This document shows positions 28,058 through 42,271 of a stretch of DNA of 64,000 nt, piece by piece. The position numbers and the translations under genes are program-made. Numbering within the stretch: the first letter of the stretch is position 1; each line of letters starts with the position of its first letter. The stretch is from Trogon surrucura (lineage: Eukaryota > Chordata > Aves > Trogoniformes > Trogonidae), in contig CM036622.1 of NCBI GenBank assembly GCA_020746105.1, positions 14,055,987 to 14,119,986 on the forward strand, read 5' to 3'. The notes under the pieces are model-generated. The model was not told where the DNA came from. It searched no databases and saw only the letters and a program-made list of their open reading frames with translations.

Positions 28058-28241
28058 TGTTGCAAATAAAGTAGAATTAAAATTGTAGAAGTAGTTAGGT
28101 TAAGGATTTGACTGGCCAGGTAGGCCTTATGAGAATAACAAGTCCTGGGAAGCAAGAAGGAGTGTGCCGAAGAAGAAGGAACAATAATCAAAGGAATCGG
28201 TAGGGCATATAGGACAAACAGAACTAGCAGAAGTAACGAAC

Positions 28242-28270
28242 AGTTGCTTAGGGAATAGTTGCTTAGGAAT
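28242..28270 (+). repeat. U3 tandem repeat, 2 copies
   Basis: The unit AGTTGCTTAGG(G)AAT occurs twice in tandem, at 28242-28256 and 28257-28270, and again in the 3' LTR at 37006-37034. Duplicated U3 units in retroviruses often act as enhancers; here that role is inferred only. Confidence 0.75.
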
Positions 28271-28428
28271 AAGAAAGGTGTATTGTATAAACAAAGGGGT
28301 TCTGGTGATGGGAATTAGTTAACCATTATCCTTAGGTTAGACAAGCATGAAAATTTATAAGTTTGGGGATAATTATCAATTGTTTCTGTATGATGTAGAA
28401 TTCTGTATGTGAGCCAAGTTGTAAAAGG

Positions 28429-28435
28429 TATAAAA
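28429..28435 (+). promoter_or_regulatory. LTR TATA box
   Basis: TATAAAA lies about 130 bp before the end of the LTR and 69 bp before the AATAAA signal (end to start). This is the normal spacing for a retroviral promoter, so transcription would start near 28455-28460. Confidence 0.8.
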
Positions 28436-28503
28436 ATTAAACAGAAAATGAGGGTCTTTGGAATCCTGACTTTGGACGCTAGTCCTCAGGTTCCCGGGCC
28501 CTG

Positions 28504-28509
28504 AATAAA
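28504..28509 (+). terminator. LTR polyadenylation signal
   Basis: AATAAA is followed within 30 bases by a T/G-rich element ('tgttggtttgtgtctttg'). The equivalent copy at 37268-37273 in the 3' LTR would end proviral transcripts. Confidence 0.8.
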
Positions 28510-28567
28510 GCACCGCATAAACTGACACTCTGTTGGTTTGTGTCTTTGTTTACGGGCAACAGTTTTC

Positions 28568-28585
28568 TGGCGACCGCGGCAGGAC
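28568..28585 (+). other. Primer-binding site, probably tRNA-Arg
   Basis: An 18-base TGGCGACC... segment starts 6 bases after the 5' LTR. Its first 7-8 bases match the complement of the 3' end of vertebrate tRNA-Arg species and the last bases fit a T-arm. By recall the match is about 14 of 18 to more than one tRNA-Arg isoacceptor. The 6-base offset from the LTR is longer than in most retroviruses. The primer identity is tentative. Confidence 0.45.
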
Positions 28586-28943
28586 TCCGGAGGCGGCAGG
28601 AGCGGTTCACGGGCTGATCCACTCCAAGCCGGCACCAGGTGATTTCTGGGGAGACATCAACCCGTGCCCGACTCCGCGCTGGACGGACAACCGTAAGGTA
28701 AGCCCGAAGGTGCTTTATTCTTTTAAGGTTGGGTGCCTGCCCATAAGACGAGGACTCATCTCGCAGGGTTGGGCAAAGGTTCTGGTATTGGGAAGCCTAG
28801 GCGCTGGCCGTAAGACGCAGCGAAAGCCGCGCTGAGCCAGCACTTGCCACTCGCGGCGTCGAGAATAGGCAAGTTGGTTGGTATTAAGGTAAAAGGGTTA
28901 TAGTATTGTAGTTGTACGAGTGTGTGTGTGTGTGAGTAGTATA
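28586..28943 (+). other. Proviral leader (5' UTR, packaging region)
   Basis: This is untranslated leader between the primer-binding site and gag. It is GC-rich at first, contains the splice donor at 28697/28698, and ends in a (TG)n run at 28919-28934 just before gag. A packaging signal would be expected here but I cannot delimit one. Confidence 0.6.
28695..28703 (+). other. Major splice donor of the provirus
   Basis: AAG|GTAAGC is close to the vertebrate donor consensus. Cutting after 28697 and joining to an acceptor just before env (for example after 34137) would make the first AUG of the spliced message the env start at 34156. Confidence 0.6.
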
Positions 28944-30628
28944 ATGCTGTTTAAAATGTTTAGAGTTCTATCGTGCAATGAAATCGATATCCCTGAGGAT
29001 TCTCCTCTTGGTTGTTTATTGAAACGTTGGAAAGATGGTAATTTTGGAAAGGAATTAAGAAAGAGAAATTTAATTGATTATTGTAATTACGTATGGCCTG
29101 AATATGAAACAGAAGGGATGCAGCGGCCACGAAACGGTACAGTGAATTCAGAAATTATAACCCCCTTAATGCAGTTCTTACGGGAAAATGAAAAATGGGA
29201 AGAGGTGCCGTACCTTGACTTATTTTATTACTTAAAAGGGAAACCTGAATGGCAGAAAGAATGTGGAATGATGGTATTGAGATTAACAGATAAGGAATGT
29301 GCTGGTTGTAAGGAGTGGAAAGTCTGGTTCTCGGAACCGGAGGAGGATGTGTCTTTGTTAGTTTCCCCAAGCGCGCCGTCGCCCCCCCGAAATACCACCA
29401 CCGAATGACCATAAGGTCACTATTCCTGTTTTAACAGAAGAGGAAACAGAGTCTGAAGAATTGTTGGCTGATAAGCCGAGAACGCCGCTTGCAGAGCGGA
29501 CTCGTAAAGGGAGGTTAGAACGGAAAAAGAGATTGCTACAACCTCATTAGATGGTCCCGTTACGGGAGGCTGTGGGGGGAAGTGGAGAAAGAATTTTAGT
29601 AAAGGTCCCATTTTCTCCGAGTGATCTGATGATTTGGAAGCAATCGGCAGGGGCATATAGAGAAAATCCGGAGAAGGTGGCTCGGGTAATAAAAATGGTG
29701 ATAAAAACACAAAATCCAGATTGGAATGATTTACAGGTGTTATTAGATACTATAATGGATTCCACTGAAAAGGAGATGGTGTTTAAGGCTATGACAGATC
29801 GAGCGCGAGAAATGGTTAGGATGCGGGTTATTAAAGGTGATACTATTAATAATTTGGTGCCCAGAGAAGATCCCGAGTGGGATCCCAACTCTGGGGAGGG
29901 GTATCGTAGACTGAAAGCGTACCAAGAATTATTGATAGATGGGATACGCGAAGGGATTCCGAAAACATTGAATTGGTCTAAATTGTATTTGGTAAGACAA
30001 GACAAAGGGGAGTCACCATCGGCTTTTTTTAGAGAGACTGAAAGAGACGGCTCGGAGATATACGGATTTGGATGTGGAAGTTGAGTCAGGCAAATTACAA
30101 TTGGCATTGATTTTTATGGGACAATCTCAGGAGGACATTAGGAAAAAGCTGCAGAAGCTAGAAGGGGAAGATACACGGAACTTGGAGAAATTATTAGAAG
30201 TGGCCTGGAAAGTATATAATAGTAGGGAAAAGGAATCAGTAAAGAAACAGCAAGCGAGCATGCTGGCAGTCCTGCAACAGGCTTCTCAAGTGAATAATAG
30301 AGGAAGGGGCCGGGGGAGAGGAAGAGGTAATGAACGAGGAAGAAACTTCGGGTTTGGGGGTTTTGGAAATCAAGTCCCGGGAGGTCGGGAAAAGTTGGGA
30401 CCTAATCAATGCGCGCTGTGTAAGGGCCAGGGACACTGGAAAAAGGAGTGCCCACTTAATTTGGGGATGGGAACACCAATGGGTGGTAACATAGGTGGAA
30501 ATGCATTAGGAAATGGGATGAATTTGGACGGAGGGATGAATTCTGGTAACGGAATGAACCCTTTTGTAGGAGGACCACAAGTTGCCGCTCAAGCTTTTAT
30601 GATGAGAAATTATCAGAATCAGAGCTGA
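28944..30628 (+). pseudogene. gag: gag (matrix, p12-like linker, capsid, nucleocapsid), interrupted
   Basis: The gene encodes the virion structural polyprotein. Matrix is read from ATG 28944 (or 28956) and has the W-P-x-Y type motifs of gammaretroviral matrix. The first residues carry no glycine at position 2, so no myristoylation signal is visible. A PSAP late-domain motif (29367-29378) follows. The frame then changes at a run of seven C (29382-29388). An amber stop lies at 29548-29550, and capsid continues from 29551. A second frame change falls at seven T (30024-30030), inside the major homology region (QxxxE...F). Nucleocapsid has an Arg/Gly-rich box and one CX2CX4HX4C knuckle (residues CALC...H...C near 30410-30450). 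It ends in a Gly/Asn/Met-rich tail at TGA 30626. Confidence 0.93.
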
Positions 30629-30632
30629 CTAG
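30626..30632 (+). promoter_or_regulatory. gag-pol stop with UGA-CUAG readthrough context
   Basis: Gag ends in TGA directly followed by CTAG. Pro-pol continues in the same frame with no ATG before the protease active site. UGA followed by CUA is the best-known leaky stop context in vertebrates, and gammaretroviruses make Gag-Pol by suppression of a stop codon. A short GGTT...AACC pairing downstream might form a stimulatory hairpin, but this is weak. Confidence 0.75.
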
Positions 30633-33600
30633 ACCGGGATTTAAAGGTTATTTTGGAAATAGGGGGGGAACCGATGGAATTTAGGGTAGATACCGGGGCA
30701 AGTTTTTCGGCAATGAATAAACAAATGGGACCTCTGAGTGATTCTACAGTGCTTGTTGTTGGGGTAACTGGGGAAGTAGAGGAAAGGACATTCCTGCGGC
30801 CACTCGATATAAAATTTGGGGGAAAGGAGTTTGACCATCAGTTTTTATATATGCCAAGCAGTCCAGAGTGTCTACTGGGAAGAGATTTACTCTCAGCATT
30901 ACAAGCACAAATCATATTTGAAAAAGGAAGAGTAAAATTAGAAATACCGGAGGAAAATTTAGCAAAAATTTTTATGGTTAGGGAGGTGGAGAAGGAGGAA
31001 ATACCACCAGAGATTGAGCAGGCTGTAGTACCATGGGTGTGGGAAATAGGAGCGCCAGGGAAATCGAAGGCAGCAGTACCTGCGATAGTGGAATTAAAAG
31101 AGGGGGCCCGACCGGTAAGGATACGTCAGTATCCTATTAAGTTGGAAGCCCGGAAAGGAATAGCCCCTATGATAACTCAGTATATGGTATTAGGAATTTT
31201 GCAGGAATGTGAATCCGAGTTCAATACTCCAATTTTCCCAGTTAGAAAACCCAACGGTAAATACAGACTAGTACAGGACTTACGAGCAGTAAATTCCATC
31301 ACCAAAGATATACACCCAGTAGTAGCCAATCCATATACTTTGTTAACATCTGTGTCTGAGAAATTTCAGTGGTTTACAGTAATTGATTTGAAAGATGCTT
31401 TCTTCTGCATCCCTCTGGCACCTGAGAGCAGAAATATTTTTGCATTTGAATGGAAAATCCGGAAACTGGACGTAAGCGCCAACTCACCTGGACCAGGTTA
31501 CCTCAAGGATTTAAGAACTCACCTACAATTTTCGGAAATCAGCTGGCCAAGGAGCTCGAAGAATGGAAAACTACCCAGGTAAAGGACTCACCTTTTTCCT
31601 ATGTTGTGTTGCAGTATGTAGATGATATTTTCCTGGGTGCTACGAATCGAAATCTCTGCCAACAATTGACTATTGAATTATTGAATATGTTGGGACAGGC
31701 TGGATACCGGGTATCCAAAGAAAAAGCACAGTTAGTAAAACAAAAGGTCATCTATTTGGGATGTGAAATTTCGCAAGGGGTTCGCCGATTGGGAGCCAAT
31801 CGCGTCCAAGCAATATGCACAATCCCCGTGCCCCGCAATCACCAAGAATTAAGATCCTTTCTAGGGATGGTCGGTTGGTGTCGCTTGTGGATTTCAAATT
31901 TTGGATTGATGGCCAGACCACTTTATGAAGCAACAAAAGAGTCTGTACTTAGATGGGGAAAGGTGCAGGAAAAGGCATTCCAGGAATTGAAAAGGGCACT
32001 CAAGGAGGCACCTGCTTTGGGTTTGCCGGATTTGAATAAGGACTTTCAACTATATGTAAATGAAAGACAGAGACTGGCCCTGGGTGTGCTTACCCAAAAG
32101 CTGGGATCCTGGAAGAGGCCTGTGGGATATTTCTCCAAACAGTTGGATACGGTAAGCGGAGGATGGCCGGGATGTTTGAGGGCAGTGGCGGCCACAGTAC
32201 TGTTGATTCAGGAAGCCCGTAAGCTAACGTTGGGAAGACACATAACAGTCTTTGTACCCCACATGGTTATAGCAGTATTGGAACAAAAAGGGGGGCAGTG
32301 GCTCTCATCAAGCAGAATGCTCCAATACCAGGCCCAGTTAAGGGAACAGGATGATGTGGAATTGAAAGTAACTAACCATCTCAACCCAGCGGAGTTTTTA
32401 AGGTCCACACAGGAAGAAGGAGAATTAGAACATGATTGCATGGAAGTGATTGAGCAGGTGTATGCCAGCCGGAAGGACCTGAAGGACGTACCCCTACCAG
32501 ATCCGGACTGGGAGCTGTTTACGGATGGATCCAGCTTCGTGGAAAATGGTACCAGGTATGCGGGATATGCAGTAGTCACATTACAGCAAATAGTAGAAGC
32601 AAAAGCGCTATCCCCAGGCACATCGGCACAAAAGGCCGAGATCTGGGCTCTAATAAGAGCCCTAATCCTGAGCCAAGGAAAGAAAGTCAATATTTGGACA
32701 GACTCTAAATATGCTTTTGGAGTAGTGCATGTGCATGGGGCTCTGTGGAAAGAGAGGGGGCTCCTCAATTCGCAAGGATCGACGGTTAAACACAAAACTG
32801 AAGTTAGTTTACTACTGGAAGTTATCTACAAACCATTAGCAGTGGCAGTAATGCATGTTAAAGGACATCAAAATGATCCAGGAAAAGAATTTCAAGGGAA
32901 TTGGTGAGCTGATCAGGTTGCCAGACAAGTGGCAAGAGAGGTATGGACTCAAATGGCACTAATACCAGTTCGAGATCAACCGGCTGCTGCATATATGGAT
33001 GAGAAACCACACTACTCACCGGAAGATGAAAAAACTGGCTCAAATGTTACAGGCAAGGAAGAACATCAAAGGCTGGTATGTAACTCCGGTGGGACAAGTA
33101 ATATTGCCGGTAAGAATTATGAAAGCAATACTAGAATCAGAACACAACAAATGTCATTGGGGTGCAGAAGCAATGGTGAAATTCCTGGAAAATGACATAT
33201 TCTCAAACCAGATGTTAACATTAGCAAAGAGAATAAATGCTATGTGTCCGGTATGTATTAAAAACAATCCAGTAATTAGGAAACAGATTCAGATGGGCAA
33301 GCTGCAAGTAGGGCCTCAACCGGGAGATTACTGGCAGATTGATTTTTCTGAGCTACCAAAAGCCCAAATGTATAAATATCTTCTGGTGTACGTGTGTACG
33401 TTTTCAGGATGGCCTGAGGCCTTCCCTTGTAGAACTAATCAAGCTAAAGAGGTGGTGAAAACACTTCTGAAAGAGATCATCCCCAGATTCGGGGTTCCGT
33501 TAGGGATATCATCAGATAGGGGCCCACATTTTACAGCAGGAATTGTCCAACAAGTTTCAGTAGTCTTAGGGATAACCTGGAATTTGCATACTCCTTGGAG

Positions 33601-34150
33601 ACCACAATCAAGTGGGCAAGTGGAAAGGATGAATCAGACTCTAAAGGGTCAAATTAAGAAAATCTGCCAAGAGGCAAAAATTCAGTGGCCGCAGGCATTG
33701 CCGTTAGCTCTACTAAGAATTAGAATTAAACCAAGGGAAAGGTTAGGAGTAAGCCCGTATGAGATCCTATACGGCAAACCCTACCATGCAGCTACTTATA
33801 AGGGAGACCCCCATCTGGTAGGAGACCAGATGATACTAAATTATGTGTTATCTCTAAATAAGACTCTTACAGCTATTAGAGGAGCACTACAGTGGAATCG
33901 ACCTCTATCACTGGATAATCCAGTCCACGACATACTTCCGGGAGACCACGTTTATGTAAGGAACTGGTCAGTGGAACCCCTGAAAGAAACATGGGACGGT
34001 CCTCACCAGGTGATCATGACCACCTATACGGCTGTCAAGGTCGGCGGGATAGACAACTGGATTCATTACACCAGAGTCAAGAAAGTTCCTACGCAATGGT
34101 CGGTAGAACCTTTATCTCCTACACGAATGGTATTCAGAAGCAAAAATTAG
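30629..34150 (+). pseudogene. pol: pro-pol (protease, reverse transcriptase, RNase H, integrase), interrupted
   Basis: The gene encodes the viral enzymes. Protease has the aspartic active site DTGAS (30689-30703) and LLGRDLL. Reverse transcriptase shows the LPQGFKNSP motif and the catalytic YVDD (31615-31626). RNase H follows with FTDGSS, AEIWAL and WTDSKYA. Integrase has the HX3H...CX2C zinc site and the D, D and E residues of a DDX35E triad (WQIDF, SSDRG, GQVERMN), then a GVSPYEILYG segment of the C-terminal domain. Breaks are a one-base frame change near 31440-31460 between RT motifs, a TGA at 32905-32907 before the last RNase H acidic residue, and a frame change at six A (33029-33034) before integrase. 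It ends at TAG 34148, six bases before the env ATG. Confidence 0.95.
34131..34137 (+). other. Candidate env splice acceptor
   Basis: TATTCAG preceded by a pyrimidine-rich stretch (from about 34109) ends 18 bases before the env ATG. A second candidate, TTTTCAG ending at 33407, lies inside integrase. Either could join the leader donor; RNA data are needed to choose. Confidence 0.35.
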
Positions 34151-34155
34151 GAGTA

Positions 34156-35089
34156 ATGGTTCTCTTTCATCTGTTGGCATTGGTAGAAACTCATGTAAAA
34201 GTTAATGTGTCTGAACCGTATCTGTTAGTACCTGAAACTACTGATGTTAACTTGACTTGTTTGTTTACTGATGACCAGGGAGCTGGATTTGAGGAAATTA
34301 ATGCGAGATGGAGGTGGATCACGGGAGATGAATTAATCACAAAAGGAATCGAAACCATCTGGGATGTGACACATCAGGAAGGGAAAACTACCCTGCAGAT
34401 ACCCAAAGTGTCAAAAGACAATGAAGGAAAATACACCTGTGTGATCTGGATACGGTATAGTGTTGATTATGGGGATATGAATCTATACGTTACTAACACT
34501 TCACAGAAAGAGGAGACTAGAGATGCAATTCAGATAATCCCAGCAAACAAGAGGGTGGAAATGTGGGATGGCCCCCCCGTTGAAAATAAATTGTACCTTT
34601 AAATTTGGAACACAATGTAGTCAAAAGGTCCAAGTGAAGTGGTGGAAGTTCAATGCCAGTCAGCAAATGTGGGGTCCACAAACAGCAGGGGTAAGTTGGA
34701 GGTCAAATAAGTTGGGAGGTAAAGGATGGTTAAACATAACAAATCCCAGGGTTGGGAGGACAGAAGGGAAATATTTGTGCATTGTTATTTGTGGAGCTAG
34801 CGGAAACTATGGGATTAGAAACGTAGAGTCGGTACCCCATCAGCATCAGGGAATAAGGCTAGAACATGGAATATATCCGGCAGTGGAAGGAAAAGACGTG
34901 ATTCTAAATTGTCTTGTACGAAATTTAAGTTATTCGGATTACGGGTGGTGGTACAAGGGAAAGAATTTAAAAACAGGAGGAAAATACCGAATTGAAAATA
35001 GGTTCCAATCGATAGTCTTGATCATTAAAAAGGTGAGCAGGGAAATTGATATTGGACGATATTGGTGCTGGATAGCCCGGGATGATTAG
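34156..35089 (+). other. Three tandem Ig-like domains in env
   Basis: Domain 1 (numbering from the ATG at 34156) has Cys35, Trp52/54 and the DNEGKYTC signature ending at Cys95. Domain 2, in the next frame (numbering from 34568), has Cys9, Trp25/26 and EGKYLC ending at Cys71. Domain 3 has Cys115, Trp127/128 and DIGRYWC ending at Cys167. Each shows the IgSF pattern of a B-strand Cys, a C-strand Trp, a hydrophobic E strand (TLQI, WLNI, IVLII) and D/E-x-G-x-Y-x-C. Cys-to-Cys spacings of 60, 62 and 52 are V-set-like. Several N-glycosylation sequons are present. This is direct pattern reading; no fold prediction was run. Confidence 0.8.
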
Positions 35090-36088
35090 TGGGTTAATGG
35101 AATGGCGACGGTGTATATAAAGAAGAAAAGAGTGGTTCGACAGGTTATCGAAGATGGTAAACTAGCTAAAGTCGGGAGTCAAGAAAATTTAATAGTAGGA
35201 TTAATTAGAGATTTTGGACAAATTCAGAATGCCACAACCATTACAGCATGTTTACCTATGCCGCATGCAGCAGGTGATCCCATACCCTGGGGAATTATAC
35301 CAGTTCTCGAAATGCCCAAAATGTTACAGAATGTTTCCTGGAATTGTAAGTTTGTCACTACCACAACTTATGAATGGGTAAATGTTTGTATATTGATTAG
35401 CAAAACAAAAATAACTAAGAAACAGTGTGAGCAAAAACCAGGATATTATGGATGGATTGAAGACCCGAAAATTAAAGGAAATTGTTTAATTCGAGACAGT
35501 GTAGTGCACCCTCGAGGCCCTGATTTATGTAGTAAAATGAGAACTCGGGAAAAACAAGAGAAGCGAGAGGAAGTGTGCCAAAATATCACCAATTCTACAA
35601 CGATGAAACAATGGCAAACAATCTGGGGACCAAGCCTGTTAGAAACATATAGTTATATTGGACCAGTACATTGGTGTATACATTGGAAGGGAAAGAAGAA
35701 TCAAACTTATTCACAGATGTATAAGGAAAGTAGTGAATGAAGAGAAGAGACACAGCTAATAGGGGATTGGAATTGTACACAAATTTACACTTGTGACACT
35801 CCTGATGAACATATTGGTTTAATGCCGGTTCGAATGCTATTGCAATTGGGTTGTGAGTGTAGAGGTTATAATCATTCCATCAGAGAAAGTTTAAAGCAAG
35901 TTGATTGCAAAACAGCCACAGTAAGGAGTCCAGGAAATCTGGTATGGGTAATGGGACATGGACACTGGACCACACATATGGCTGTCGATGGGCCAGCTAC
36001 TCAGATTACCTTGGGAGTCCCAACACTTTGTCCATTCTGGAAATATTCAAAACTCACCACAAAGGAAATGCAGGGAAGGCAAAAACGG
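35090..36088 (+). other. Env surface (SU) portion up to furin site
   Basis: Cysteine-rich, glycosylation-rich sequence (NAT, NVS, NIT, NST and NQT sequons) that follows the Ig domains and ends at RQKR. I do not see a CXXC isomerase motif of the CWLC type that gammaretroviral SU usually carries. A TGA at 35738-35740 splits it, but the same frame stays coding afterwards. Its receptor is unknown. Confidence 0.75.
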
Positions 36089-36766
36089 GATATTGGTGAT
36101 GATATCGACGACATAGGATTAGGAAATGACGAGTGGCACGAACCATCTTCAGGGGTTAAGTTTGGGTGGGTATTAGAATCTATATTTGCACAGGTATCAA
36201 CATATCGGAATCGGGAAATGTTGTTTAAATTATTGGGACAAACTGAAAGGCTTGCAGCAGTAACTAAGAAGGGATTTAGGGATTTGAATCTACAACTACA
36301 AGCAACCACTAGAATGACAATACAAAATCGAATGGCCTTGGACCTGATGTTATTAAAGGAACATGGAGTTTGTGGGTACCTGCATGGTAGAATTGATCAT
36401 TGTTGTGTGCACATCCCAAACGTTACTCAAGAAATTGAAAAGGACATTAGCCAATTGGAACAAATCGAAGGGAAAGTCCATGAAATTCAGAAGGAAGCAG
36501 AACACAATTGGATAGGAGAAATATTCAGCTCCCTGGGAATTCGAGTTTCTGGTTGGATATCATCTATTGTACAATATGGAATCATGATTGTTGTGATTAT
36601 CATTGTTGCCTTGATTACGTATAAGTGTCTTTTAGGAATGATCATAAGAGAAGGACAACATACTCGGAGAGTCATGAAGGCGATGACACGCAGGGAAGTG
36701 ATATTTCCACAGAACCACCTGCAACCCCATCCAGACAACCCACCCGCTTACCAAGAGACGACAACC
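36089..36766 (+). other. Env transmembrane (TM) subunit
   Basis: After the furin site comes an acidic stretch (DIGDDIDDIG) rather than a hydrophobic fusion peptide. A possible internal hydrophobic segment is FGWVLESIFAQV. Coiled-coil-like sequence leads to an immunosuppressive-domain-like region and a CX9CC motif (residues 184, 194 and 195 counted from the ATG at 35822). A hydrophobic anchor lies at about residues 246-272. The cytoplasmic tail contains PPAY (residues 307-310). This portion is intact. Confidence 0.85.
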
Positions 36767-36769
36767 TAA

Positions 36770-36808
36770 ATGGTTGAGCATCCTTGCGAAGATAATCGAA
36801 GAATGCTC
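36770..36808 (+). other. Short env-to-PPT spacer
   Basis: About 40 bases between the env stop and the polypurine tract. Nothing else is seen. Confidence 0.6.
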
Positions 36809-36819
36809 AAAAGGGGGGA
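36809..36819 (+). other. Polypurine tract
   Basis: An AAAAGGGGGGA run ends two bases before the 3' LTR. This is the expected plus-strand primer for reverse transcription. Confidence 0.9.
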
Positions 36820-36821
36820 CT

Positions 36822-37325
36822 TGTTGCAAATAAAGTAGAATTAAAATTGTAGAAGTAGTTAGGTTAAGGATTTGACTGGCCAGGTAGGCCTTATGAGAAT
36901 AACAAGTCCTGGGAAGCAAGAAGGAGTGTGCCGAAGAAGAAGGAACAATAATCAAAGGAATCGGTAGGGCATATAGGACAAACAGAACTAGCAGAAGTAA
37001 CGAACAGTTGCTTAGGGAATAGTTGCTTAGGAATAAGAAAGGTGTATTGTATAAACAAAGGGGTTCTGGTGATGGGAATTAGTTAACCATTATCCTTAGG
37101 TTAGACAAGCATGAAAATTTATAAGTTTGGGGATAATTATCAATTGTTTCTGTATGATGTAGAATTCTGTATGTGAGCCAAGTTGTAAAAGGTATAAAAA
37201 TTAAACAGAAAATGAGGGTCTTTGGAATCCTGACTTTGGACGCTAGTCCTCAGGTTCCCGGGCCCTGAATAAAGCACCGCATAAACTGACACTCTGTTGG
37301 TTTGTGTCTTTGTTTACGGGCAACA
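36822..37325 (+). repeat. 3' LTR (504 bp)
   Basis: It has the same length and, by eye, the same sequence as the 5' LTR, including the TGTTGC...GCAACA ends, the U3 tandem repeat (37006-37034), the TATA box (37193-37199) and AATAAA (37268-37273). It could act as a promoter into the DNA upstream of KCNH8. Confidence 0.97.
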
Positions 37326-41454: not shown

Positions 41455-42271
41455 AGATCTGGACAGGCTGGAGGGCTGGGCCAAGGTGAACCTCATGAAG
41501 TTCAGTAAGGACAAGTGTAGAGTCCTGCATCTGGGGAGGAATAACACCAGGCACCAGGACAGATTAGGGGTCATCCTGCTGGAACGCACACCCAAGGAGA
41601 AAGACCTTGGAGTCCTAGTGGGCAGTCAGTTGTCCATGGGACAGCAATGTGCCCTTGTGGCCAAGAGGGCCAATGGGGTCCTGGGGTGCATTAAGAAAAG
41701 TGTGCCCAGCAAGTCTAGGGAGATTCTCCTTCCCCTCTACTCTGCCCTGGTGAGACCACACCTGGAATACTGTGTCCAGTTTTGGGGTCCCCAATTCAAG
41801 AGAGACAGGGACCTACTGGAGAGAGTCCAACAGAGAGCTACGAGGGTGGTCAAGGGACTTGAACATTTCTCCTATGAAGAGAAACTGGGAGAACTGGGGC
41901 TGTTTAGTCTTGAAAGGAGACGGCCGAGAGGGAATCTTATTAATGTATACAAATATCTGAGGGATGGGTGTCAAGAGGAAGGAGACAATCTCTTCTCAGT
42001 TGTACCCAGTAACAAACCAAGAAATAATGGGTTTAAGTTAGAACATAGGAAGTTCCACCTCAACATGAGGAGAAGCTTCTTAACTGTGAGGGTGACGGAG
42101 CACTGGCACAGGCTGTCCAGAGAGGTTGTGGAGTCTCCTTCTCTGGAGACTTTCAAACCCTGCCTGGGCAAGTTCCTGTGTGGCTGCCCCAGGTGATCCT
42201 GCTTTGGCAGGGGGGTTGGACTGGATGATCTTTTGAGGTCCCTTCCAACTCCTGACATCCTATGATTCTAT
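41455..42271 (+). mobile_element. CR1 LINE fragment with long open reverse transcriptase end
   Basis: A 5'-truncated CR1 whose reverse transcriptase C-terminal frame is open for 236 codons from 41486 to 42196. Motifs include [38 protein letters not shown] and [17 protein letters not shown]. It ends in the typical 3' UTR and 'cctatgattct'. It is the least decayed CR1 in the window and so probably the youngest. It lacks the endonuclease and RT catalytic regions and cannot be autonomous. Confidence 0.95.

What the first reader, a model, noticed from the sequence alone, without database searches (positions are those of the whole stretch)
34156..35089. Retroviral env carrying three N-terminal immunoglobulin-like domains
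Seen: three consecutive segments each have the IgSF signature (Cys, Trp, hydrophobic strand, D/E-x-G-x-Y-x-C), placed after the env start and signal-like leader and before the Env surface portion. They make env about 300 residues longer than usual. Known: the receptor-binding domain of MLV-type SU has an Ig-like beta-sandwich fold but not this sequence signature. Inference: the virus captured host Ig exons or expanded an Ig-like receptor-binding module, which could serve cell targeting, receptor decoy or immune interference. I know of no described Env with this layout.
Basis: partly seen in the sequence, partly recalled or inferred. Interest (0 to 1): 0.88.

Follow-up and report, generated by a model that had tools for sequence, protein, structure and literature searches.

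The report
Retrovirus envelope with immune-ligand-like Ig domains
A young family of retroviruses in this genome carries three antibody-like domains at the front of its surface protein, the first resembling the immune-braking ligands PD-L1 and PD-L2, so the virus may borrow the look of a host immune signal.

Summary
Window 28058-37325 is a provirus with identical 504-bp LTRs. Its env opens with three Ig-type domains: Pfam recognises D1 and D3; D2 only resembles D1 and PD-L2. The window's env is broken, but 10 of 67 sampled copies read as one open 870-aa Env. Of 75 close TM copies, 74 have D1 within 3.5 kb; the other lies at a contig end. Two related env families that I read lack the module, so it was probably gained. 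It has two alleles (D1 dS 1.2, dN/dS 0.15, one pair) that reassort with two alleles of a downstream SU cassette. The D1 profile's best PDB match is PD-L2. With PD-L2 as genome query, provirus D1s follow the host PD-L1 and PD-L2 exons (Ig-2 D1s E 5e-4 and 8e-4; the rest weak); with CD276 a D1 comes last of 27. Best reading: a captured, diversified PD-L-like Ig module on a gamma-type Env, acting in attachment and/or immune inhibition. PD-1 binding is untested. Ten paper searches listed no Env of this layout.

The parts
28058..28561 (+). 5' LTR (TG...CA), identical to the 3' LTR; 4-bp repeat CCTC on both sides of the element
36822..37325 (+). 3' LTR
28893..30628 (+). gag region, split over several frames here; Gag_p30 and CCHC knuckle matched in the piece 29996-30625, the part before it assigned by position only
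   Evidence: Pfam
30629..34150 (+). pro-pol: protease, RT, RNase H, integrase with MLV-type C-terminal domain; broken frames in the window
34156..34581 (+). env start, signal-like leader and D1, a V-type Ig domain (PD-L2/CD276-like)
34568..34852 (+). D2, Ig domain by likeness to D1 and PD-L2 V; no Pfam match
34853..35134 (+). D3, I-set Ig domain; in-frame stop at 35087-35089 in this copy, before the presumed last strand
34260..35200 (+). Ig cassette, approximate bounds, with two alleles in the genome (Ig-1 here; Ig-2 in L009 and L010/L011)
35090..36088 (+). SU core (about 330 aa), ending at the RQKR cleavage motif 36077-36088; in-frame stop at 35738-35740 in this copy
35280..35640 (+). variable SU cassette, alleles A (here) and B; missing in the short form
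36089..36769 (+). TM subunit: immunosuppressive-type motif (recognised by eye), CX9CC, transmembrane segment (by eye)

Best explanation
This is the env of a young class I (gamma-like) endogenous retrovirus family. Its ancestor gained a three-domain Ig module between the signal peptide and the SU core. D1, and probably D2, descend from a PD-L1/PD-L2-type V domain of the B7 family; D3 is an I-set-type domain. Shown here: the domains are in frame in open copies, constant in the family, absent from two related env families, diverged between two alleles under constraint (D1), and exchanged as a cassette. Inferred: the module stands at the outer end of SU, fixed to the virion and infected-cell surface through SU-TM, and binds an Ig-superfamily partner on immune cells (most likely PD-1 or a related CD28-family receptor). 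That would attach the virus to those cells and/or send them an inhibitory signal. The downstream SU cassette and TM keep the ordinary receptor and fusion work. My estimates: gained, functional Ig module 0.9; PD-L-type origin of D1 0.65; PD-1-family partner 0.35.
For: Ig profile matches for D1 and D3, also in the Ig-2 allele. 870-aa open env in 10 of 67 copies. D1 beside 74 of 75 close TM copies. L079 (532-aa open frame) has the SU core right after a signal peptide; L080, which shares the pol lineage, shows no Ig match either. Ig-1 vs Ig-2 (window vs L009) D1: dS 1.21, dN 0.18; dN 0.16 and 0.21 for D2 and D3, where dS could not be computed (saturated). Combinations Ig1-A, Ig1-B and Ig2-B with flanks 92-100% identical. 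The D1 profile's best PDB hit is PD-L2 at 3.3e-8, with no gap over 101 residues. A profile of four PD-L V domains scores D1 of both alleles at 2.8e-8 and 2.8e-7 and D2 at about 0.01 (database size set by me). PD-L2 query in the genome: host PD-L1 exon (7e-12), host PD-L2 exon (5e-5), then the two Ig-2 D1s (5e-4, 8e-4) and 41 Ig-1 D1 rows before the first other stretch at 0.094. CD276 query: 27 matches, a provirus D1 only last at E 5.8, behind 26 other stretches.
Against: In one search the Ig-1 D1s are individually not significant (E 0.01-1.9), and the window's own D1 (0.108) ranks just behind an unrelated stretch (0.094). D1 scores lower with this host's own PD-L1 and PD-L2 V exons (57 and 53, z about 6) than with human PD-L2 (86) or CD276 (80). 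Human PD-L2 lacks a loop that the host's proteins have and D1 also lacks, so shared length helps that match. Pairwise, CD276 does as well as PD-L2 for D1, and CD276 is second in the PDB search (3e-7). With the window's D1 alone, CD276 ranks above PD-L2. D2's PD-L2 likeness is not significant in a database search (E 0.22). D3 does not resemble the host PD-L1 C domain (z -0.5), so the module is not a whole PD-L protein. The Trp of PD-L2's G-strand region (recalled as part of the PD-1 contact) is not present in D1 (alignment). No usable structure. The host PD-L1 query of the genome did not complete. No binding data.
Confidence: 0.5

Rival explanations
1. The Ig module is an attachment or receptor-binding domain only: a generic adhesion-type Ig array that binds a cell-surface protein for entry, with no immune-checkpoint role. 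Its alleles give different receptor use, as SU variable regions do in other retroviruses.
For: Cassette alleles that reassort and diverge far more than their flanks; a second variable cassette just downstream; D3 is nearest to titin and CEACAM I-set domains.
Against: D1 is best matched by PD-L2 in the profile search and ranks near host PD-L1/PD-L2 in the genome. Sister Envs without the module still have the SU core, so the core can probably serve alone (inference).
Confidence: 0.3
2. The module is mainly an antigenic shield or decoy: a host-like, glycosylated array that hides the SU core from antibodies; its alleles reflect immune escape.
For: Seven N-glycosylation motifs in the three pieces; two strongly diverged alleles.
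Against: dN/dS of D1 is 0.15 between alleles (one pair), so it is constrained overall; this does not exclude local positive selection, which was not tested.
Confidence: 0.12
3. Truncated forms matter: proviruses whose env stops after D1 or near the end of D3 make secreted one- or three-domain Ig proteins that act as soluble decoys.
For: 10 of 67 copies stop at codon 311; ten stop after 141, six after 142 and five after 148 codons.
Against: The codon-311 stop cuts D3 before its presumed last strand. The early stops come from frame changes that differ between copies, which looks like decay or amplification of a defective copy. No expression data.
Confidence: 0.08
4. The Ig-like signatures are the virus's own receptor-binding fold that has drifted into Ig-like motifs, not a captured host module.
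For: MLV-type receptor-binding domains are beta-sandwiches (recalled; review passages describe a core of beta strands).
Against: Curated Ig profiles match significantly; the module is extra length in front of an SU core that sister Envs also have; no retroviral SU appears among the 60 D1 matches shown of 73.
Confidence: 0.03

Closest known systems
CrocERV31 of alligators with captured nectin3 (Chong et al. 2014, PMC4299795; passages read)
   Same: An ERV lineage carrying a host-derived protein with three Ig-like domains, reported under purifying selection
   Different: There the nectin3 ORF replaces env. Here the Ig domains are fused in frame in front of SU-TM. Nectin does not appear among the 60 D1 matches shown of 73
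CrocERV29 with captured KIT ligand (same paper)
   Different: A separate ORF between pol and env, not an Env domain
Gamma-type retroviral Env (review PMC9967133, passages read)
   Same: Immunosuppressive-type motif, CXnCC in TM, RQKR cleavage motif, TM weakly similar to ERV, MLV and filovirus TM (E 0.0017 and up)
   Different: n is 9 rather than 6; no CXXC in the SU pieces; about 300 extra N-terminal residues
PD-L1 (CD274) and PD-L2 (PDCD1LG2)
   Same: D1 aligns over its whole V domain to PD-L2; in the genome the Ig-2 D1s rank next after the host's PD-L1/PD-L2 exons
   Different: Followed by a second V-like and an I-set domain, not by the PD-L C domain; anchored through SU-TM

Membership tests
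Class I (gamma-like) endogenous retrovirus | LTR-gag-pro-pol-env-LTR with Gag_p30, RVP, RVT, RNase H, rve and MLV-type IN C-terminus | tested here: met
   no pol tree was made
Gamma-type Env | TM with immunosuppressive-type motif followed by CXnCC | tested here: met
   CGYLHGRIDHCC, n = 9 where 6 is typical (for the norm); PDB TM matches E 0.0017 and up; Pfam TLV_coat below its cutoff in the window piece (E 0.027), above it in sister L079 (1.5e-6)
Gamma-type Env | CXXC in SU | tested here: not met
   none in the five window env pieces nor in sister L079; alpharetroviruses also lack it
Gamma-type Env | R-peptide and SU-TM disulfide | not tested
   -
Immunoglobulin superfamily, D1 and D3 | Ig profile match and canonical Cys/Trp/G-x-Y-x-C | tested here: met
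Immunoglobulin superfamily, D2 | Ig profile match | tested here: inconclusive
   no Pfam match; hhalign to D1 only 26% probability; motifs present; aligns to D1 and PD-L2
PD-L1/PD-L2 (B7 family) | V domain closest to PD-L1/PD-L2 among V-set domains | tested here: inconclusive
   for; against: (CD276 equal or better in single-sequence scores)
PD-L1/PD-L2 (B7 family) | V domain followed by the PD-L C domain | tested here: not met
   D3 vs host PD-L1 C domain z -0.5
PD-L1/PD-L2 (B7 family) | binds PD-1 | not testable with these tools
   -
Nectin3 capture as in CrocERV31 | captured nectin replaces env | tested here: not met
   SU-TM retained; nectin not among the 60 of 73 D1 hits shown

The most novel reading that the evidence does not exclude
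A retrovirus has put a PD-1-ligand mimic on its own fusion glycoprotein: each virion and infected cell shows a PD-L-like V domain that engages PD-1 (or a sister receptor) on lymphocytes, combining targeting with checkpoint inhibition. Its alleles circulate as an exchangeable cassette.
Probability: 0.3. Interest if true: 0.95.

Novelty: new variant of a known kind. Interest (0 to 1): 0.85.

Why it matters
Host gene capture by retroviruses usually costs viral genes or stays a separate ORF (paper passages). Here a host-type Ig array has become part of the entry glycoprotein and has itself diversified into exchangeable alleles. If the PD-L link holds, it would be a direct retroviral use of immune-checkpoint biology, with old alleles preserved in one genome, so the evolution of such mimicry could be followed. 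It would also show how an Env can take on a whole new outer domain while keeping its SU core and TM.

Tried and rejected
Nested insertion or separate gene: rejected, because 10 of 67 copies have a single 870-aa frame and the module goes with TM in 74 of 75 copies. Chance motif: rejected for D1 and D3 on profile E-values and constraint between alleles. Nectin capture as in alligators: not supported. Structure: two AlphaFold jobs, D2-D3 without an alignment and D1 with a three-row one, gave pLDDT 38 and 45, so no fold search was run. Profile comparison by hhalign was weak for all three domain pairs (26%, 0.1%, 3.5%). Relatives elsewhere: none confirmed in viral contigs for D1 or TM; the protein database was switched off. 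Host donor by direct search: D1 (E <= 0.001) gave 83 matches, which I read as provirus copies; the Ig-2 D1 (E <= 10) gave provirus D1 and D2 plus one other stretch at E 7.3; D2-D3 gave non-provirus I-set-like stretches only at E 0.03 and worse. A recognisable close donor is not shown. A possible cleavage motif KKKR after D3 is not kept in the Ig-2 allele and was dropped as an argument. Host identity: not settled; the lysozyme search did not complete.

Full report
What is there. The window holds a provirus at 28058-37325: two LTRs of 504 bp, identical over their whole length, TG...CA ends and a 4-bp repeat CCTC on both sides. Between them lie gag, pro-pol and env with class I signatures (Gag_p30, RVP, RVT, RNase H, rve, MLVIN_C). 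Frames are broken in several places. The 40 best LTR matches scored in the genome, of 194 candidates, are 98-100% identical to this one, so the family has young members; no date was computed.

The Ig segment. Env starts at 34156. D1 matches Pfam ig/Ig_2 (E 1.5e-6, 3.5e-6) and D3 Ig_3/I-set (6.5e-6, 2.7e-5). D2 has no Pfam match, but it holds a Cys pair, Trp and EGKYLC, aligns to D1 and to mouse PD-L2 V; hhalign of D2 to D1 gave only 26% probability. In the window the frame changes between D1 and D2, and stops follow at 35087-35089 and 35738-35740.

Sister copies. D1 gives 83 matches in the window's own assembly (1.17 Gb, 164 contigs), 67 of them at 94-100% identity over at least 140 of 142 residues, at 78 distinct places, the window's included. 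I took env regions of 70 of these 78 places (L009-L078). Of 67 loci whose D1 start could be read, 10 have a single open env of 870 aa, ten stop at codon 311, ten after 141, six after 142 and five after 148 codons, and the other 26 elsewhere or at a contig end. To avoid the bias of searching by D1, I searched by SU-TM: 118 of 830 candidates were scored. Of the 75 with at least 78% identity, 74 have D1 within 3.5 kb, and the other lies at a contig end. The module is thus a constant part of this env.

Gain. The other 43 scored TM matches (36-44% identity) lie in open frames of at most 532 aa, too short for Ig plus SU-TM in one frame, although many of these copies are broken. I read two of the 43. 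L079 has a 532-aa open frame in which the SU core begins just after a signal peptide; its pol is of another lineage (weak IN match only, E 0.012). L080 shares the pol lineage (IN 47% over 133 aa) and TM (48% over 163 aa), has about 60 residues before the SU core, and gave no Ig match above chance level. With both outgroups lacking it, gain in the window's lineage is the simplest reading; loss in both is not excluded.

Alleles and cassettes. Sliding identity shows two exchangeable stretches. The Ig cassette (about 34260-35200) has alleles Ig-1 and Ig-2, mostly 53-80% identical at DNA level. An SU cassette (about 35280-35640) has alleles A and B, 49-76%. The flanks are 92-100% identical. By typing of 70 loci: Ig1-A 30, Ig1-B 25, Ig1 with neither SU allele 12, Ig2-B 2, Ig2 with no SU in the stretch 1. 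The last and one of the Ig2-B loci are probably the two halves of one provirus. Ig-2 therefore rests on two proviruses. L009 (Ig2) matches B copies at 93-100% in the SU cassette, so the cassettes have reassorted. Between Ig-1 and Ig-2 (window vs L009), D1 has dS 1.21 and dN 0.18 (ratio 0.15). For D2 and D3 dS is saturated, with dN 0.16 and 0.21. SU A vs B gives ratios 0.21-0.29 in seven pairs. The Ig hallmarks are kept across alleles. This is what a functional surface module of a replicating virus should look like; within the young Ig-1 copies there are too few changes to judge. All ten open 870-aa copies are of type Ig1-A.

Short form. The twelve Ig1 loci with neither SU allele lack most of SU. 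In L075, which I aligned, 35224-36000 is missing, the frame is kept and 611 aa are open.

Origin. The D1 profile (two alleles) against all PDB chains gives PD-L2 first (3.3e-8, no gap over 101 residues), then CD276 (3e-7); the window's D1 alone gives CD276 first (4.4e-7) and PD-L2 fourth (3.8e-4). The D2 profile's Ig hits are four PD-L2 chains, not significant (E 0.22-0.47). D3 is nearest titin I-set (1.2e-11). Searching the genome with human PD-L2 V gives L081 (E 7e-12), which is the host's PD-L1 (PDB PD-L1 4.9e-37), and L082 17 kb away (5e-5), read as PD-L2 by position and sequence. Next come the two Ig-2 D1s (5e-4, 8e-4) and 41 Ig-1 D1 rows (0.01-0.09), then another stretch at 0.094, then the remaining D1 rows (the window's at 0.108) and two other stretches at 4.4 and 9.9. 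As a control, CD276 V gives 27 matches: the host's CD276, then 25 others with the PD-L exons among them, and a provirus D1 only last at E 5.8. Against this: in pairwise scores D1 is as close to CD276 as to PD-L2, and less close to the host's own PD-L1/PD-L2. The lack of one loop is shared with mammalian PD-L2 and may help the ranking. A recent copy of this host's present-day gene is not supported; an old capture or another B7-type donor remains open.

Function. Position, constraint and allele exchange point to binding at the outer surface. A PD-L-type V domain makes PD-1 or a relative the first candidate partner; that step is inference. Sister Envs without the module suggest that the SU core and TM can do entry alone, so the module may add attachment or inhibition instead of replacing the receptor function.

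Known work. Ten searches of the PMC library (listings and abstract starts seen) listed no Env with added Ig domains. The nearest is nectin3 replacing env in CrocERV31 (passages read). In the gamma-type Env review 'ig-like' does not occur and 'immunoglobulin' occurs twice, one shown in a reference title and one not shown (passages). In the env recombination review and the monotreme env paper neither term occurs (find). The zebrafish Env38 paper uses Ig-like domains of CD4, not of Env, in the passages seen. One bird ERV paper cited in the recombination review could not be opened. Subscription papers are mostly absent, so prior description cannot be excluded.

Limits. No usable structure; the host is taken to be a bird by inference only (a CR1-like LINE fragment, recalled); only best candidates are scored in genome searches; no collection of bird genomes could be searched.

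Noticed in passing
12 loci with neither SU allele (e.g. L075, L065, L067): A short env form lacks most of SU but keeps the Ig domains and TM; it is shared by several loci and open (611 aa) in L075.
   Followed up: partly
G000 C61:3494170, 3502920, 3511670, 3520422; C2:21317133 and 21325862: D1 copies spaced about 8.73-8.75 kb apart, close to one provirus less one LTR: probable tandem proviral arrays sharing LTRs (spacing).
   Followed up: no
G000 contigs C60-C63: 33 of 78 D1 places lie on four contigs that make up 1.6% of the assembly; possibly W-linked sequence, not tested.
   Followed up: no
L079 (G000 C1:47249800-47253300): Another ERV family with many copies carries a related env (TM about 38%) on a pol of a different lineage, which suggests env exchange between lineages.
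   Followed up: partly
codon 311 of env, window 35087-35089: The same stop near the D3 end is the first stop in 10 of 67 copies and is also seen at the junction in further frame-shifted copies.
   Followed up: partly
window 34560-34610: The stretch between D1 and D2 is a hot spot of frame loss that differs between copies.
   Followed up: partly
L010/L011 (G000 C63:1886500-1898500): An Ig-2 provirus appears interrupted inside D1 by about 7 kb of other sequence.
   Followed up: no
window 41456-42196: Long ORF that looks like a CR1-type LINE reverse transcriptase end (recognised from memory).
   Followed up: no
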